DNA of 64,000 bases, taken from the NCBI RefSeq assembly GCF_007993755.1, contig NZ_CP042467.1, positions 3,868,001-3,932,000 of the forward strand, read 5' to 3'. A program made the translations under genes and the position numbers. Positions within the stretch are counted from its first letter, which is position 1. Each line of letters opens with the position of its first letter. Below the pieces are notes generated by a model. It worked only from the letters and a program-made list of their open reading frames with translations, was not told the DNA's origin and ran no database searches. Positions 36,360 through 49,037 of this stretch are shown piece by piece. The DNA comes from Microvenator marinus. GTDB lineage: Bacteria > Myxococcota_A > Bradymonadia > Bradymonadales > Bradymonadaceae.

Positions 36360-37274
36360 TTAGAGGCTCGACTGCAGCGTGATGTAGCAGGAGTCGTCGT
36401 CGCAAAGGCCTTCATTGCATGCGATGAACGAGTCTACGGCGTCTTTAGAGGCCGAGTCGCAGGTGGTGCGGCATGCCGAGAGGGTGCCGGCATCGATGCA
36501 ATCGAAGAATGCCATGTCGTCGCATGCGGATTTGCATCCGGCCACATTCGCACTTCCACCACCTTCGGAGATCAGCGCGTAGCACGAGTCATCCTGGCAA
36601 ATGCCCGCTGAGACGCATGAGTTGAACGAAGACGCGGTTTGGTCGTCGAGCGTTGCACAGGTGGTGGTGCACGCTGCTACGTCAGTTCCGGTGATGCATT
36701 GGAAGAAGCCGAGTCGCTCGCATGAAGCGGTGCACTCTTCTTGAGGTGTTGGTGGTTCAGGCTCTTCGAACTGACAAGCCTCAACGAATTCGCAGCCGGT
36801 GCGTGTGCTTTCGCAGTAGTCGAGGAATGCTTTCTCTTCGTCGCTAGCTGCGGCACATTGTGCGGCGCAATCCAGAGGAGGAATGCACTGCTCCGTAACA
36901 AGGGTGTTACACGCAGTTTGGCAATCATCCACGGTGGTCGCAGGTGGTGGAGTTGGAGGCTGGATATTGATGGCGCATTCCACGTCACAGATATCGTTGG
37001 TCACGCAGCCCACGAAGAGCTCGATTCCCGACTCACTGGCGCCATCACAGTCTCTGTAACAACCAGCGTGCATTGCGGCATCGTAGCAATCGAAGAATTT
37101 TTGTTGGTCGCATGCTTGCTTGCATTCGTTGATGGCTGCGGCTGGTGCCACAGGGCCAGGGTTGCCGTTAGGGTTCGTGCCGTTGTTGGCAGCCGCCTTT
37201 GATGTGTCGTCTCCGCATGCGGAAATGGCGAATGTGGTTGCGCACAAGATGACCAGTTTTGTTTTCGAAAACAT
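36360..37274 (-). CDS. Lipoprotein of four eight-cysteine modules
   Basis: 304 residues. Signal ending FAISAC gives lipidated Cys20, followed by an Asn/Gly/Pro linker. Four modules of about 50 residues follow, each with the spacing C-x3-C-x7-C-x5/8-C-x3-C-x13-C-x4/6-C-x3/5-C. Three carry the aromatic pair FF before the third Cys (QQKFFDC, RLGFFQC, DMAFFDC); module 2 has VTEQC instead. Eight cysteines per module imply four disulphides each. No named family is recognised. It lies upstream of the DUF4331 pair in the same direction, 131 bases away. Confidence 0.75.
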   Translation of the reverse strand: MFSKTKLVILCATTFAISACGDDTSKAAANNGTNPNGNPGPVAPAAAINECKQACDQQKFFDCYDAAMHAGCYRDCDGASESGIELFVGCVTNDICDVECAINIQPPTPPPATTVDDCQTACNTLVTEQCIPPLDCAAQCAAASDEEKAFLDYCESTRTGCEFVEACQFEEPEPPTPQEECTASCERLGFFQCITGTDVAACTTTCATLDDQTASSFNSCVSAGICQDDSCYALISEGGGSANVAGCKSACDDMAFFDCIDAGTLSACRTTCDSASKDAVDSFIACNEGLCDDDSCYITLQSSL

Positions 37275-39573: not shown

Positions 39574-41223
39574 ATGAGCAGAGAGATACGCGCACCCCGA
39601 GGAAATACGCTTAGTTGCAAGGGCTGGCAGCAAGAAGCGGCAATGCGGATGTTGATGAATAATCTAGATCCGGAGGTCGCCGAGAACCCTGCCGAGCTTG
39701 TGGTTTACGGCGGAAATGGGCGTGCAGCTCGAAACTGGGAGGCCTTTGAGGTGATCGTGCGCGAGCTCAAGAACCTTGAGAATGACGAGACCCTGCTCGT
39801 GCAGTCTGGCAAGGCGGTGGCGGTCTTCAAGACGCATACGGACGCGCCGCGCGTGCTCATCGCGAACTCGAACCTCGTGGGTAAATGGGCCAACTGGGAG
39901 CACTTCCGCGAGCTCGAGCGCCAGGGGCTGATGATGTACGGGCAGATGACGGCTGGGTCGTGGATTTATATCGGGACGCAGGGGATTTTGCAGGGGACTT
40001 ACGAGACTTTTGCGGCCTGTGGACGCACGCATTTTGACGGCGATTTGAGTGGCAAATGGGTACTGACGGCGGGGCTCGGCGGTATGGGCGGCGCACAGCC
40101 GCTGGCGGCGTCTATGGCGGGCGCGGCGAGCCTGAACGTGGACGTGGAGGAGTGGCGGATCAAGAGGCGTGTGGAGACTCGCTATCTGGATAAATGGACC
40201 CGTGACTTGGACGAGGCGTTGGCGTGGATTGAGGAGGCGACGGCCGCCGGCGCGCCCACGAGCATTGGTCTTCTGGGCAATGCGGCCGAGATTCACTGGC
40301 AGATTCTAGACCGCGGCATCGTGCCCGACATGGTCACCGACCAGACGAGTGCGCACGACCCTCTCAACGGCTACGTGCCAGCGGGCATCAGCCTCGACGA
40401 GGCGCTCAAGCTCCGCGAATCCGACCCCGACACCTATATCCGGCGCTCCAAAGCGAGCATGCGGCGCCACGTGGAAGCCATGGTGGCGTTTCAGAGCCGC
40501 GGCTCGGTGGTCTTTGATTACGGCAATAATATTCGGCAAGAGGCCTTCGACGAGGGTTTTGAGCAGGCGTTCTCGTTCCCTGGCTTTGTTCCGGCGTACA
40601 TTCGCCCGCTCTTTTGCGAGGGCTCGGGGCCGTTTAGGTGGGCCGCGCTCTCGGGCAACCCTGAGGATATCTACAAGACGGATGAGGCGCTCAAGGAACT
40701 CTTCCCCGAGAAGACTCATCTCTTGCGTTGGCTCGAAATGGCGCGTGAACGCGTGGCGTTCCAGGGGCTTCCAGCGCGGATTTGCTGGCTTGGCTACGGC
40801 GAGCGCGCAAAGGCCGGGCTGATGTTCAATAAGATGGTGCGCGATGGCGTGCTCTCTGCGCCGATCGTGATGGGGCGTGACCACTTGGACTGCGGGAGCG
40901 TCGCGAGCCCGAATCGCGAGACCGAGGCGATGAAAGACGGCTCGGACGCGGTGGCCGACTGGCCGATCCTCAACGCCATGGTCAACGCCGTCAACGGCGC
41001 CACCTGGGTGAGCTTCCACCATGGTGGCGGCGTGGGCATGGGTTATTCGCTGCACGCCGGCCAGGTGATCGTGTGCGATGGCACGGCCGAGGCCGACCGG
41101 CGCATTGAGCGCGTTCTGACAAGCGACCCGGGCATGGGCGTGGTTCGCCACGTGGATGCCGGCTACGAGCGCGCGGTCGAGGTGGCCAAAGAGCGCGGTG
41201 TTCGCGTGCCACACCTCGAGTAG
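39574..41223 (+). CDS. hutU: Urocanate hydratase
   Basis: 549 residues, standard length. Converts urocanate to imidazolone propionate, the second step of histidine breakdown, using tightly bound NAD. Visible motifs: GNGRAARNW near the start, [43 protein letters not shown] (NAD site), [12 protein letters not shown] and [13 protein letters not shown] with Cys440, the conserved active-site region. Other hut genes are not next to it, so histidine use must be completed by genes elsewhere. Confidence 0.98.
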
Positions 41224-41295: not shown

Positions 41296-42615
41296 ATGCA
41301 GAAGATTGGATGGTTTGGACTATTCGTGTGTCTTTGGTTGGTGTTGCCTGGTGCGGCCTTTGCTTGGCCCGGGCTTGATAAACCGGCGGTTGTGGATGCC
41401 TCCGGCACCAAAGATGTGGCCATCATTGTGGCGGTGGAAGATTACCTGATGCTCCCGGACGTCAAGGGTGCCATCAAGAATGCCAACGAGTGGGAGATCT
41501 TTTTGCAACGCTCCCTGCAGGTGCCCGAGGTGCACGTGCTGGTCAACCAGGAGGCCACAAAAGAGGCCATGCTTCGGTTTGCCAGGCTTGCGAAGGACCA
41601 GGTCAAGGATGGTGGCCGCATCTGGTGGGTATTCATCGGGCACGGGGCGCCCTCTAAGGCGGGCGACGGCTTGTTGATTGGGGCGGATGCGCAGCAGACG
41701 GTGGAGAGTCTAGAGTCGCGCGGGCTCTTGCACTCGGAGCTTATGGCGGCACTCGCGAACGATAAAGCCAAGACCGTGATGGTCCTGGATGCGTGTTTCA
41801 GTGGGCAGTCGCAGTCCGGTGAGGCGCTGGCAAAGGGCGTGCAGCCGGTGATTGCGGTCAAGAATTCGAACGTGCCGAAGAACTTTGTGGTCCTGAGCGC
41901 GGCCAAGGCCAACGAGGTAGCGGGCTCGCTCGGGGTGGTGGATCGGCCGGCGTTCTCATACCTCTTGTTGGGTGCGTTGCGTGGTTGGGGCGATGATGGG
42001 GACGGCAAGGTAGACGCTCAGGAGGCCGTGCTCTACACGCGGCGAAAGCTGCGAGGTATCAAGGGGCGGCAGCAAACGCCGCAGGCCGATGGCGAGGTGG
42101 GCGAGGTGCTTGTGACGGGCGTGGAGGAGGCTGAGCCTGAGGTGGTGGAGCAGCCTGCTGAGCAAGCGTCAAGCGGCGGAAACTCAGATGCGGAGCGCAC
42201 GCTCGAATACTTGCGCCGCCGCCTTACCATCGACGACCAGGACGTGATTCGGCAGGGCGAGACGAAGTTGGATTCGATCATGTTCTATCATGAGATCGGT
42301 CGCGCTGATCTGGCCGATGAGTTCATGACGCATAACCCGTATCTCTGGGTGCCTGGAATTGCGCTGACGGCTGCAGGCGTAACCTTGTTATCGCTAGGCG
42401 TGGCCAACGCGCGAGAGTCTACGGGCTGGTTTATCGGCGGGAGTTTGGGCGGGTTTTTTGCCATGAGCGCGGGCATCGCGGGGATTACGTTCGGCTTCAT
42501 CTGGGACTATGAGCCGCTAAACGCCGGGGAGCGGCGTAATGCCGCGGAAGTCTACAACCGCGAGCTTCGAGACGAACTGGGGATCAAGGGTGTGCAAGCG
42601 GGTTGGGAGTTTTAG
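41296..42615 (+). CDS. Secreted or membrane caspase-like protease (peptidase C14)
   Basis: 439 residues with a signal peptide (about 1-23, ending AFA). The caspase p20-like fold shows VAIIVAVEDY, then His116 in FIGHGAP and Cys167 in VMVLDACFSG, the catalytic pair of clan CD peptidases. An acidic EF-hand-like loop DDGDGKVDAQE follows near residue 235. Two hydrophobic segments (about 350-400) place the C-terminal part in a membrane. This is the metacaspase-like group frequent in Myxococcota; substrates are unknown. It precedes two paralogous CAP-like lipoproteins. Confidence 0.85.
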   Translation: MQKIGWFGLFVCLWLVLPGAAFAWPGLDKPAVVDASGTKDVAIIVAVEDYLMLPDVKGAIKNANEWEIFLQRSLQVPEVHVLVNQEATKEAMLRFARLAKDQVKDGGRIWWVFIGHGAPSKAGDGLLIGADAQQTVESLESRGLLHSELMAALANDKAKTVMVLDACFSGQSQSGEALAKGVQPVIAVKNSNVPKNFVVLSAAKANEVAGSLGVVDRPAFSYLLLGALRGWGDDGDGKVDAQEAVLYTRRKLRGIKGRQQTPQADGEVGEVLVTGVEEAEPEVVEQPAEQASSGGNSDAERTLEYLRRRLTIDDQDVIRQGETKLDSIMFYHEIGRADLADEFMTHNPYLWVPGIALTAAGVTLLSLGVANARESTGWFIGGSLGGFFAMSAGIAGITFGFIWDYEPLNAGERRNAAEVYNRELRDELGIKGVQAGWEF

Positions 42616-42680
42616 GTCGTCTAGGATATTGCGGTGATTTAAAAAATAGGGCAGTCTTCGCCTCAGGACACAACCCATCT

Positions 42681-42698
42681 AACGCGGGAGCCCGCGTT
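42681..42698. other. Short GC-rich inverted repeat
   Basis: AACGCGGG-AG-CCCGCGTT is a perfect 8-base inverted repeat with a 2-base spacer between the caspase-like gene and the next lipoprotein. The tiny spacer and missing T-run argue against a standard terminator; a protein-binding dyad is as likely. Confidence 0.4.
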
Positions 42699-42725
42699 TA
42701 CTGACTGACTCCGAATGAGGGGGAT

Positions 42726-44573
42726 ATGAACACACGAATTACAATCGGATTTCTTCTAGCACTTAGCCTTGGATGTGGCGGTTCTGCGGAACGCCAAATC
42801 CAGTTCCCGAGTGCCCAACGCGTGCAGCAACTCGCACAGTCCGCACCCGCACCCAATCTGGAGGACACGAAGTTGGTCTTGGTGGACGAATGGGCCTTGA
42901 TCCAGAGTCCGCAGGTGGCGGGCGGGGTACCACTTCGCACCACAAACCCTGTTGAATCAATCCTCGGTGGCATGATCCGAGCCGGAGATGGTCTTGAGAT
43001 GACCGAGGCTGCGGCCTGCACCGCCAACGAGATCGCTCGATATATCCAGGAGAATGGAAAGCCCGCGGGGGCAATCGAGACATTCATCGCGAGGCGTTGC
43101 GGCCTTGTTCATCCATCGGTCCAGTTCACCTATAGAACCAGCGATAGGCGACTTGAGCCCAAGGATATTCGCCAGATTCAATCGGATATTCAGGCGGATG
43201 TTGACTCCATCCGAGCGCTCGGACGCCCGTTTGAAGTAGGGATGGCGCTCTACGCGACCGACAAAGGTAGTGTCTTATCTCTCATCTACTCCGAAAAGGA
43301 GGTTGAGGTTGAGCCCTTCAACATGCAGATTCAGGGTACACAAGCCGTCATTCAGGGAACGTCGAATATGCCGAACGTCGGCTATATGTGGGCCTCGGTC
43401 AATCAAGGCACGCACGGTTATGAAACATGTGAGCTCGACGCACGCGTGGAGCTGCCGAAGTTCCGGGTGGTGTGCAATATCCTTGTGGATGACCCCTACA
43501 CGTCGATCGCTATCTACCAAAAAGAGCGTGATAGGTTCCTCGGGTATCCCGCGGCTTCGGTGATCGTGGCGTCCGGTAAGCAGCCGACCAACGTCTATCG
43601 AACACCGCGTATTCGCGCTGAGTTGATGGCACGAGCTGACGAAGAAAACCCGGTCTCTGAAGTTGAGGTAGCTGAGGCCAATATGGAGGCAGGCGTCAAG
43701 GGTACCGAGCCGAGTGCAGGGGATTCCGCTCCGGTTGATGCAACCGCTGAAGCTGCAACCGAGCCAAAGGCTGAGATGCCCAAACGCGTGGAGGTGATCC
43801 CACAACCCAAGATTGGTCGCAGCCCGGCAACCTATCACCAGGATATTGTGACTCTGGTCAACGCGATTCGCGAGAGGCAAAAGCTTGCGCCGATTGGCCT
43901 AGAGAAAGCCCAGTCTGATACCGTAGCAAAGCTCGCTGCGGCGCTCTTGGCGTCGGAGAATCCGAAAGAACAAGATGAGATCAGCCTCGCGATCATGGCG
44001 GGCTGGGACGTTGGCGGGCGGATCGTGAACGGAACCATGCAGACGAGCTATTTGCCCAGCACCGATCCGGTGGCGCATTTGGACCTTATTCTCGACTCGC
44101 CGCAAGGGCGCGCGTTTCTTTTGGATCCGCAGCTCTCCACCGTGGCGATCGGCGCAAACCTCGGTTCCACGACGCAACTAGTGATGGCGGGGTATCACTT
44201 CGCCCCCGAGGAGTCGATTCAGCGCCGAACGGGACAGGTCTTGAGGAAGATCAACGCAGCTCGCAAAGGGCTTGGGTTGCCAGCTGCCAAAGAGAGCAAG
44301 AAGATGCGCGGTGTGGCGGTGGCCATCTCGGACCGGTTGAACCGCGGCGAGGATATGGATGACACGGCTAACGCCATGATGGCGACGATGGTCAAGAAAC
44401 ATAACCGCGGTGTGCGCGGATACTGGCAGCGTGTGGCGAGTCTTGATGAGATTCAGCTCCCCAGGGCCGTCTTGGCTAAGAAGTCTCTCACGCTGAGCGT
44501 TGCTGTGGGCCTCGCCCAAGACGAAGGGTTTCCTTGGTCCGAATATATCGTTGTGATTTCGTATCTGGACTAA
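42726..44573 (+). CDS. Lipoprotein with C-terminal CAP/SCP-like domain
   Basis: 615 residues. Signal ending LALSLGC, with lipidated Cys17. The first 300 residues are a domain shared with the next gene but not recognised. An Ala/Glu-rich linker (about 310-360) leads to a segment starting VTLVNAIRERQKLAPIGL, which is laid out like the first helix of CAP (SCP/PR-1) domains, with a later VAIGANLGS. The usual CAP histidines are not evident. Probably an outer-membrane surface protein. Confidence 0.6.
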   Translation: MNTRITIGFLLALSLGCGGSAERQIQFPSAQRVQQLAQSAPAPNLEDTKLVLVDEWALIQSPQVAGGVPLRTTNPVESILGGMIRAGDGLEMTEAAACTANEIARYIQENGKPAGAIETFIARRCGLVHPSVQFTYRTSDRRLEPKDIRQIQSDIQADVDSIRALGRPFEVGMALYATDKGSVLSLIYSEKEVEVEPFNMQIQGTQAVIQGTSNMPNVGYMWASVNQGTHGYETCELDARVELPKFRVVCNILVDDPYTSIAIYQKERDRFLGYPAASVIVASGKQPTNVYRTPRIRAELMARADEENPVSEVEVAEANMEAGVKGTEPSAGDSAPVDATAEAATEPKAEMPKRVEVIPQPKIGRSPATYHQDIVTLVNAIRERQKLAPIGLEKAQSDTVAKLAAALLASENPKEQDEISLAIMAGWDVGGRIVNGTMQTSYLPSTDPVAHLDLILDSPQGRAFLLDPQLSTVAIGANLGSTTQLVMAGYHFAPEESIQRRTGQVLRKINAARKGLGLPAAKESKKMRGVAVAISDRLNRGEDMDDTANAMMATMVKKHNRGVRGYWQRVASLDEIQLPRAVLAKKSLTLSVAVGLAQDEGFPWSEYIVVISYLD

Positions 44574-44591
44574 CGAAGTACTCGCCGAACA

Positions 44592-46292
44592 ATGAATAAA
44601 CTTTCCCAGCAAATCTCTCTGACTATGGTCTTTAGGTGGTGGGCATTCCTGATGTGTTGTGTTTTAAGTGGATGCGCGACAACCCACCAACCGTACATAT
44701 GGACTAGTCCGGCAGAGGTTAGGACCATCATAGAGACCACGCCAAAGGCTTTGCCTCAGGTACGAGAGACTATTGCTCCTGAAGAATGGGAAGTCGCCAC
44801 CGACCAAACGGTAACTGGGCATGCACCGAAGAATCCGAAATCACCGGCTGAGCTCGCCTTAGTAAGTCTGTTTAAGGGGGATAGGAGTCGAGTGCTTTCC
44901 TACACTCAAACCTGCGCTGCGCGAGAGTGGTGGCGAGCGTACACCCATTCGGGGAGTAAGTGGTTTGCCCCGAGGGTCGATAGATTTGTGTCGAATAGAT
45001 GCGGAGCGACCGGCGTGGGAGGCAGGTATGCGCAATTGATACGAGGGGGAAAGTCCCCCTTTCAGCCAGGACGAATAGAGCCATCAATAAAGGCATGGAT
45101 GGAAGAGATCTTGGAGTCTCAGAAGGATGCCCCGGTTCTGGAGTTTGGAATCCTTGAGGCCGAATGGGCTGGTGAACTTGTCGTTGTGATTGTGGTGCAG
45201 GCTCCGCGGATCTTGGTCGAGCCCAGGCTCATGAATGTTGGAGGAAGAGAGGTAGAGTTTGTGGGGCGGGCGGTCAGTGGTTCAGTGGAGCGAGGCTTTG
45301 CGGTGGTGACGTATGGCGACCATATGAGGTGGTGCAGGCTTGACCCATCCACGAAGCCGCCACAATTCAAGGTTATCTGTCCGCTAAATCCAGAAGACCC
45401 CTACGCCTACATCGACCTCTACTTGGCAGGGAAAGGCGAGAATCTGGGAAGTCTTTCGGCGGAGTTGATGGTGAGTCCGTCAGGGGAGCCTCCGAAAGTG
45501 TACAAGCCGTCGAAAGTCGAGGAGGTCATCCGCGATCACGAGTTCCAAGAGGCAATGAGTTGGGAGGCGCAATTTGTAGATGGTTTGAACGCAGTGCGTA
45601 GGTCTGCGGGTCTACATCCAGTTGTGCTCGCGCGGGAACAATCCAAGACAGCATCAGGTCTTCTACCTGCTATGCGGAGCGACGATGTTTCGCTATCAAA
45701 TCGAGCGTACCTGGGCCTGAAGGCTGGATGGGATCTCGGCGATGCGCGGATCGTATCTTTTGGGACGTCCACATCGGCAATCTTCGGAAACGATGTCCAA
45801 GAGCACTTGAGCGAGCACTTGAATCACGGTCTCAGCCGCATGAGAGCGTTGAGTCCAGATACGGATGTGGTCGCGTTGGGGGTTGGGCAGTCTGAGGGTT
45901 CGACAATGGTGACATTTGCGGTGTACGGGGTGATCGAGGACGAGACGATTCAGGCTCGAGCGAACAAGGTTTTCGAAGCCATCAACGCGCAGCGAAAAGA
46001 ACTCGGTAGACGCCCACTTTCATTGCGACTTGATGCACAAGTGAAGGCGCTCGACCTCATCAAGAAGTTTGACGTAGGTGAACTCGATGAACCCGATGTG
46101 ATGGAAGGGATCTGCGACTTTGACGGAGCTGATGAATGCAATGAATACTGGGTTGAGTCCTTGAACTACTGGAGTATGGACTCCGATATCTTGGATGAGG
46201 ACGCAAAACAGGTCGCTATCGGTGTCAGTGGAGTCCCACTTCCAAACACGCCTCACTGGACCTACATTCTTTGGATTGTGACATTCGACTAG
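44592..46292 (+). CDS. Paralogue of the preceding CAP-like lipoprotein
   Basis: 566 residues. The signal ends VLSGC. The ATG at 44592 is used; ATG 44625 would give a shorter signal. Shared features with the upstream gene include a PAxxxTxxTxxCxAxE-type early segment, the domain with CRLDPSTKPPQFKVICPLNPEDPYAYIDLY matching DPYTSIAIY in the paralogue, and the CAP-like FVDGLNAVRRSAGLHPV and NKVFEAINAQRKELGRRPL. The same architecture at 18 bases spacing suggests tandem duplication followed by strong divergence. Confidence 0.6.
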   Translation: MNKLSQQISLTMVFRWWAFLMCCVLSGCATTHQPYIWTSPAEVRTIIETTPKALPQVRETIAPEEWEVATDQTVTGHAPKNPKSPAELALVSLFKGDRSRVLSYTQTCAAREWWRAYTHSGSKWFAPRVDRFVSNRCGATGVGGRYAQLIRGGKSPFQPGRIEPSIKAWMEEILESQKDAPVLEFGILEAEWAGELVVVIVVQAPRILVEPRLMNVGGREVEFVGRAVSGSVERGFAVVTYGDHMRWCRLDPSTKPPQFKVICPLNPEDPYAYIDLYLAGKGENLGSLSAELMVSPSGEPPKVYKPSKVEEVIRDHEFQEAMSWEAQFVDGLNAVRRSAGLHPVVLAREQSKTASGLLPAMRSDDVSLSNRAYLGLKAGWDLGDARIVSFGTSTSAIFGNDVQEHLSEHLNHGLSRMRALSPDTDVVALGVGQSEGSTMVTFAVYGVIEDETIQARANKVFEAINAQRKELGRRPLSLRLDAQVKALDLIKKFDVGELDEPDVMEGICDFDGADECNEYWVESLNYWSMDSDILDEDAKQVAIGVSGVPLPNTPHWTYILWIVTFD

Positions 46293-46366: not shown

Positions 46367-46540
46367 ATGCTCCGGAAAACTGAGATCACCATGACAAAAT
46401 TGGCAGGCCCAGGCGTGTTGATGGGTCTGAGTGTGCTCATGTTGGCCGGATGTCAGCAAGCCGGCCCCAATCGCGTGTGGACGGTTGTATTCTTGGCTAT
46501 CTGGGCGGTCTTTCGGGCATTTGTGGCGCGCGGCGAGTAA
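46367..46540 (+). CDS. Very small lipoprotein
   Basis: 57 residues from ATG 46367, seven bases after AAGGTGG; ATG 46391 is an alternative. The segment LMGLSVLMLAGC is a clear lipobox, giving a mature protein of about 29 residues that contains a hydrophobic stretch (VWTVVFLAIWAVFRAF). It could be a lipoprotein anchored twice or a membrane peptide. It lies 85 bases before gyrB. No family recognised. Confidence 0.5.
   Translation: MLRKTEITMTKLAGPGVLMGLSVLMLAGCQQAGPNRVWTVVFLAIWAVFRAFVARGE

Positions 46541-46589: not shown

Positions 46590-49037
<2,448 letters not shown>

What the first reader, a model, noticed from the sequence alone, without database searches (positions are those of the whole stretch)
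41296..46292. Secreted caspase-like protein followed by two diverged CAP-like lipoproteins
A signal-peptide caspase homologue with an intact His/Cys pair and an acidic EF-hand-like loop precedes two tandem paralogues that combine an unknown lipoprotein domain with a CAP-like end. Exported caspase-like enzymes are rare, and both kinds of protein act on cells or proteins outside in other organisms. The set could be an envelope or prey-directed system.
Basis: inference. Interest (0 to 1): 0.6.

Follow-up and report, generated by a model that had tools for sequence, protein, structure and literature searches.

The report
Exported caspase beside unrelated CAP lipoproteins
A bacterium of the Myxococcota phylum carries an exported caspase-like protease gene next to two duplicated lipoprotein genes built from CAP-like domains; each belongs to a real family, but they sit together only in this one genome, so they are most likely neighbours by chance and not one system.

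Summary
P0001 (41296-42615) is an exported caspase-family protease (NCBIfam E 3.5e-15; His116/Cys167), one of six such genes in this genome and part of a family expanded in Myxococcota, so exported caspases are not rare here. P0002 and P0003 (42726-46292) are a tandem pair from a lipoprotein family found in 33 of 379 Myxococcota genomes. An AlphaFold model of P0002 (pLDDT 82.7) matches solved CAP proteins. Its 'unknown' N-terminal domain, folded alone, also ranks CAP proteins first, though weakly; an Ig-like sandwich follows. The architecture is probably lipobox, CAP-like, Ig-like, CAP-like, CAP-like; known CAP metal histidines are not conserved. The claimed set fails its own test: no caspase lies in the fetched flanks (about 1-10 kb) of 36 CAP-lipoprotein genes in other genomes, and the best P0001 orthologues have no CAP gene nearby or none at all. 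The same kind of test does find a conserved caspase-plus-two-lipoprotein cassette around a different paralogue in this genome. Verdict: two genuine, poorly described envelope families, most likely adjacent by chance; modest interest.

The parts
41296..42615 (+). P0001, exported caspase-family protease, 439 aa: signal peptide 1-23, caspase domain about 40-255 (His116, Cys167), linker, C-terminal module with two hydrophobic segments (349-370, 379-402)
41986..42024 (+). acidic, incomplete EF-hand-like loop WGDDGDGKVDAQE (P0001 residues 231-243)
   Evidence: Gly at ligand position 1, loop lost in several paralogues
42682..42697 (.). perfect inverted repeat ACGCGGG-AG-CCCGCGT in the 110-bp gap between the caspase and the first CAP gene; no T-run behind it
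   Evidence: single occurrence in the window
42726..44573 (+). P0002, triple-CAP-like lipoprotein, 615 aa: lipobox Cys17; CAP-like N domain about 75-190; Ig-like beta domain about 193-292; disordered linker about 300-365; CAP-A 367-492; CAP-B 498-614
44592..46292 (+). P0003, diverged tandem paralogue of P0002, 566 aa, lipobox LSGC with Cys28

Best explanation
Two independent envelope modules lie side by side. (1) P0001 is a Sec-exported clan CD cysteine protease of the bacterial caspase (C14-like) kind. Its catalytic domain would face the periplasm, held at a membrane by a C-terminal hairpin of two hydrophobic segments; the Asp two residues before the catalytic Cys predicts cleavage after Arg/Lys, as in metacaspases, and the acidic loop may make it respond to calcium. 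It most likely trims other envelope proteins under stress. (2) P0002 and P0003 are duplicated, lipid-anchored proteins made of three CAP-like domains and one Ig-like domain, without the known CAP metal histidines, most likely non-enzymatic binding or adhesion scaffolds of the envelope. Shown: gene content, caspase family and dyad, lipoboxes, CAP fold in the model, lack of conserved linkage. Inferred: topology, substrate preference, calcium response, stress role, scaffold role.
For: Caspase: NCBIfam 3.5e-15, PADLOC 3.8e-10; own-genome paralogues reach Pfam PF00656 above its cut-off (3.2e-10, 6.3e-12, 3.1e-12); His and Cys columns invariant; hydrophobic segments. CAP: model pLDDT 82.7, pTM 0.78 matches 4ifa, 3nt8, 4h0a, 2ddb and 4d53 (BB0689, TMt 0.74); CAP-A and CAP-B align profile to profile at E 5.7e-5; N domain alone ranks BB0689 and other CAP proteins on top. 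Independence: no caspase in the flanks of 36 other CAP genes, while the same profile finds the caspase in the control region L070; P0001 orthologues without CAP neighbours; CAP pair conserved without a caspase in G013, G016, G018.
Against: hutU, caspase, CAP1 and CAP2 are co-directional with short gaps (72, 110 and 18 bp), so they could share a transcript here. Co-occurrence at phylum level is slightly above chance (9 seen against 4.7 expected, p 0.03), though three of the nine are one genus. The N-domain CAP match has weak Foldseek E-values (0.016 at best). No functional data of any kind; membrane anchoring and cleavage preference rest on general knowledge.
Confidence: 0.72

Rival explanations
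1. The three genes form a young, genome-specific operon in which the caspase cuts the long, Arg/Lys-containing linker (about 295-365) of P0002 and releases the CAP-A/CAP-B part from its lipid anchor.
For: Co-directional genes with short gaps; P0002 has a long disordered linker (pLDDT below 50 in most of 308-363) with Arg/Lys residues; an Asp precedes the catalytic Cys as in Arg/Lys-specific metacaspases (general knowledge).
Against: No linkage in any other genome examined; the other CAP protein with a long linker (G010) is in a genome with no caspase of this family; P0003 and most relatives lack the long linker; 110-bp gap with an inverted repeat between caspase and CAP1.
Confidence: 0.1
2. 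A prey-directed or envelope-attack system: secreted caspase plus CAP effectors acting on other cells.
For: All three proteins are exported; some CAP proteins and proteases act outside cells in other organisms (general knowledge); PMC3501461 raises fratricide for extracellular metacaspases.
Against: P0001 has a C-terminal pair of hydrophobic segments and the CAP proteins have lipoboxes, which argue for retention in the cell's own envelope; no conserved linkage or recurrent partner seen; CAP metal histidines not conserved.
Confidence: 0.06
3. P0001 is a regulatory protease for programmed cell death, as proposed for other bacterial caspase homologues.
For: The family is expanded (up to 13 members per genome) with variable C-terminal parts, as expected of paralogues with separate triggers; the literature proposes death roles for bacterial caspases (PMC3501461).
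Against: The signal peptide places it outside the cytoplasm, where the best-studied bacterial caspase effectors do not act (general knowledge); no recognised death partner among the neighbouring ORFs.
Confidence: 0.12

Closest known systems
Prokaryotic caspase homologues (metacaspases/orthocaspases, Pfam PF00656; NCBIfam NF047832)
   Same: p20-type domain with His/Cys dyad, GHG and DACFSG motifs; the survey PMC3501461 already records possible signal peptides (46 sequences) and extracellular or membrane forms
   Different: P0001 itself does not reach Pfam PF00656, scores 56 against 140 bits for NF047832, has its own C-terminal two-segment module, and belongs to a Myxococcota branch with many exported paralogues
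BB0689 of Borrelia burgdorferi (PDB 4d53), a single-CAP surface lipoprotein
   Same: CAP fold on a lipid anchor; top structural match to the N domain and high target coverage for the full model (TMt 0.74); reported not to share common functions of other CAP proteins (PMC11784157)
   Different: One CAP domain against three CAP-like domains plus an Ig-like domain; about 10% identity in the structural alignment
Na-ASP-1 (PDB 3nt8) and bacterial SCP-domain proteins (4ifa, 4h0a)
   Same: CAP/SCP fold; Na-ASP-1 also has tandem CAP domains (general knowledge)
   Different: No lipobox plus Ig-like plus triple-CAP layout known to me; identity 8-18% in the structural alignments

Membership tests
Bacterial caspase homologues (Peptidase C14) | significant match to a caspase-domain profile | tested here: met
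   NCBIfam 3.5e-15, PADLOC 3.8e-10; Pfam PF00656 not reached by P0001 itself but by paralogues L078 and L080, 45-52% identical
Bacterial caspase homologues (Peptidase C14) | catalytic His/Cys dyad | tested here: met
   His116, Cys167; invariant in 15 family members
Bacterial caspase homologues (Peptidase C14) | protease activity after Arg/Lys | not testable with these tools
   only inferred from the Asp two residues before the Cys
NCBIfam NF047832 (EACC1-associated caspase) subfamily | score above 140 bits | tested here: not met
   56 bits; it shares the domain, not the subfamily
EF-hand | complete 12-residue loop | tested here: not met
   Gly at position 1, no Pfam EF-hand match in P0001; loop not conserved in paralogues
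CAP superfamily (PF00188) | profile match over cut-off | tested here: inconclusive
   P0002 15 bits against 21.1, P0003 none; 4 of 19 family members match, best 4.7e-6
CAP superfamily (PF00188) | CAP alpha-beta-alpha fold | tested here: met
   AlphaFold model of P0002 matches solved CAP proteins by Foldseek; N domain alone too, more weakly. P0003 was not modelled
CAP superfamily (PF00188) | metal-binding His pair (His54/His103 of GAPR-1) | tested here: not met
   only one His-rich column in CAP-A/CAP-B, at P0002 position 406 (58% of family, Ala in both window proteins)
Bacterial lipoproteins | N-terminal signal and lipobox Cys | tested here: met
   Cys17 column invariant in 19 of 19
A conserved caspase-CAP system | conserved gene neighbourhood | tested here: not met
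   together only in this genome

The most novel reading that the evidence does not exclude
The caspase and the two triple-CAP lipoproteins form a genome-specific surface-release system: a calcium-responsive periplasmic caspase shaves P0002 at its linker and frees the CAP domains.
Probability: 0.08. Interest if true: 0.6.

Novelty: new variant of a known kind. Interest (0 to 1): 0.3.

Why it matters
It shows that exported caspases are a normal, expanded part of the envelope repertoire in this part of Myxococcota, and it interprets the 'unknown domain' of a phylum-wide lipoprotein family as another diverged CAP-like domain, giving a triple-CAP architecture that I did not find described in the papers searched. 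It also redirects attention: the conserved exported-caspase cassette with two lipoproteins is elsewhere in the same genome.

Tried and rejected
Scans of viral contigs with P0001 and with the caspase family alignment gave no relatives. Sequence searches of solved structures: caspase gave nothing, CAP only E 0.21 to GAPR-1. Two broad CAP alignments were too diverse for a genome-contig scan; a three-sequence one worked (six loci). Promoter and terminator scans were at chance level. A search for genes that recur next to CAP lipoproteins found only three clusters, in at most six genera, on differing strands and at differing distances, so no partner was assigned. Homology of the N domain to CAP-A by sequence alone is only suggestive (hhalign E 0.037). 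Reading the C-terminal end of P0001 as an outer-membrane targeting strand was considered and not pursued. The exact taxonomic name of the genome was not determined.

Full report
Observation. The ORFs are as stated: 41296-42615, 42726-44573 and 44592-46292, all on the + strand, between urocanase hutU (39574-41223; TIGR01228 E 2.6e-300) and a gyrB-like gene (46626-49037, identified by reading the translation). Gaps are 72, 110, 18 and 333 bp.

The caspase. P0001 begins with a signal peptide (cut after AFA by inspection), then a caspase domain: NCBIfam NF047832 at 3.5e-15 (56 bits, below that subfamily's 140-bit cut-off) and PADLOC caspase at 3.8e-10. It does not reach Pfam PF00656, but two paralogues from the same genome that are 45-52% identical do. 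His116 and Cys167 are in invariant columns of the family. The acidic loop 231-243 lacks the first EF-hand ligand and is absent from several paralogues, so calcium control is possible but not shown. The C-terminal part has two hydrophobic segments; the same module occurs in a 55% identical orthologue in G004, in G008 and, without a caspase domain, in G010 and G019.

Exported caspases are not rare here. The own genome has six family members and other genomes up to 13; 33 of 57 genomes of the class have one at E 0.001, and 54 of 379 phylum genomes at E 1e-40. Many begin with signal peptides or lipoboxes (by inspection). A survey already noted signal-peptide-like N-termini and extracellular forms among prokaryotic caspase homologues (PMC3501461).

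The CAP lipoproteins. P0002 and P0003 belong to a family with an invariant lipobox Cys, four further invariant Cys in the N-terminal half (P0002 98, 125, 235, 250) and conserved CAP-like motifs. At full length it is present in 9 of 21 family genomes, 12 of 57 class genomes and 33 of 379 phylum genomes (one of the 33, G265, is partial). Tandem pairs occur in G000, G013, G016 and G018. Named relatives are uncultured Myxococcales/Myxococcota assemblies. The AlphaFold model of P0002, from an eight-sequence alignment, has pLDDT 82.7 and pTM 0.78. Foldseek returns several solved CAP/SCP proteins, including BB0689 with TMt 0.74; the two top hits, a Tetrahymena axonemal chain, have poor TM-scores for the full model. 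CAP-A and CAP-B are related by profile comparison (E 5.7e-5). The N-terminal 'unknown' domain (residues 40-195), modelled alone (pLDDT 83.4), has BB0689 first and Ac-ASP-7, BmVAL-1, SAV1118, SmVAL4, HpVAL4 and Na-ASP-2 among its top matches. E-values are weak (0.016 or worse) and query TM-scores are 0.3-0.55, so I hold this at about 0.75. The region 193-292 is a beta sandwich; Ig-type domains are frequent hits of the full model. GAPR-1's metal histidines (His54, His103; PMC7554809) have no conserved counterpart.

Are they one system? I read the flanks of 33 places with CAP genes (36 genes outside this genome) and of one control region, L070, with G004's caspase. Flanks vary from about 1 to 10 kb because some contigs are short. 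The caspase profile matched only in the control region. The G004 orthologue of P0001 is on another contig than its CAP genes, and G008 and G011 lack CAP genes. Association of presence: family p 0.58, class p 0.08, phylum p 0.03 with nine genomes holding both, three of them one genus. Positive contrast: two other lipoprotein families that flank the own-genome caspase at contig positions 1580986-1581774 lie beside caspase genes in at least twelve class genomes, so this way of testing does detect real linkage.

Mechanism. I take the two modules as independent. For P0001, a periplasm-facing, membrane-held Arg/Lys-type protease acting on envelope proteins is the most likely role; for P0002/P0003, non-enzymatic scaffolds on a lipid anchor. 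Both are inference from anatomy and family knowledge. A linker-shaving operon is possible in this genome alone (0.1).

Verdict. Interest 0.3.

Noticed in passing
own genome G000:C1:1579262-1583057 (L080:5260-9130): A different exported caspase paralogue sits between two lipoprotein genes (one with a weak FlgT_N match in relatives, E 0.0014-0.0021; the other with no Pfam match). Both partners recur next to caspase genes in at least 12 of 57 class genomes: a conserved exported-caspase cassette and a better target than the reported set.
   Followed up: partly
window 46391-46540 (+): Small 49-codon ORF with a lipobox-like LAGC and a hydrophobic stretch, between the second CAP gene and the gyrB-like gene.
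   Followed up: no
window 36360-37274 (-): Lipoprotein-like ORF with several cysteine-rich repeats.
   Followed up: no
G055:C574 (18-42 kb) and G255:C354 (8-23 kb): Clusters of several exported-caspase family genes close together on one contig.
   Followed up: no
PDB 8th8_P and 8tid_P (fold searches): A Tetrahymena N-DRC linker chain is a top match to both the full model and the N domain; it may contain an unrecognised CAP-like fold.
   Followed up: no
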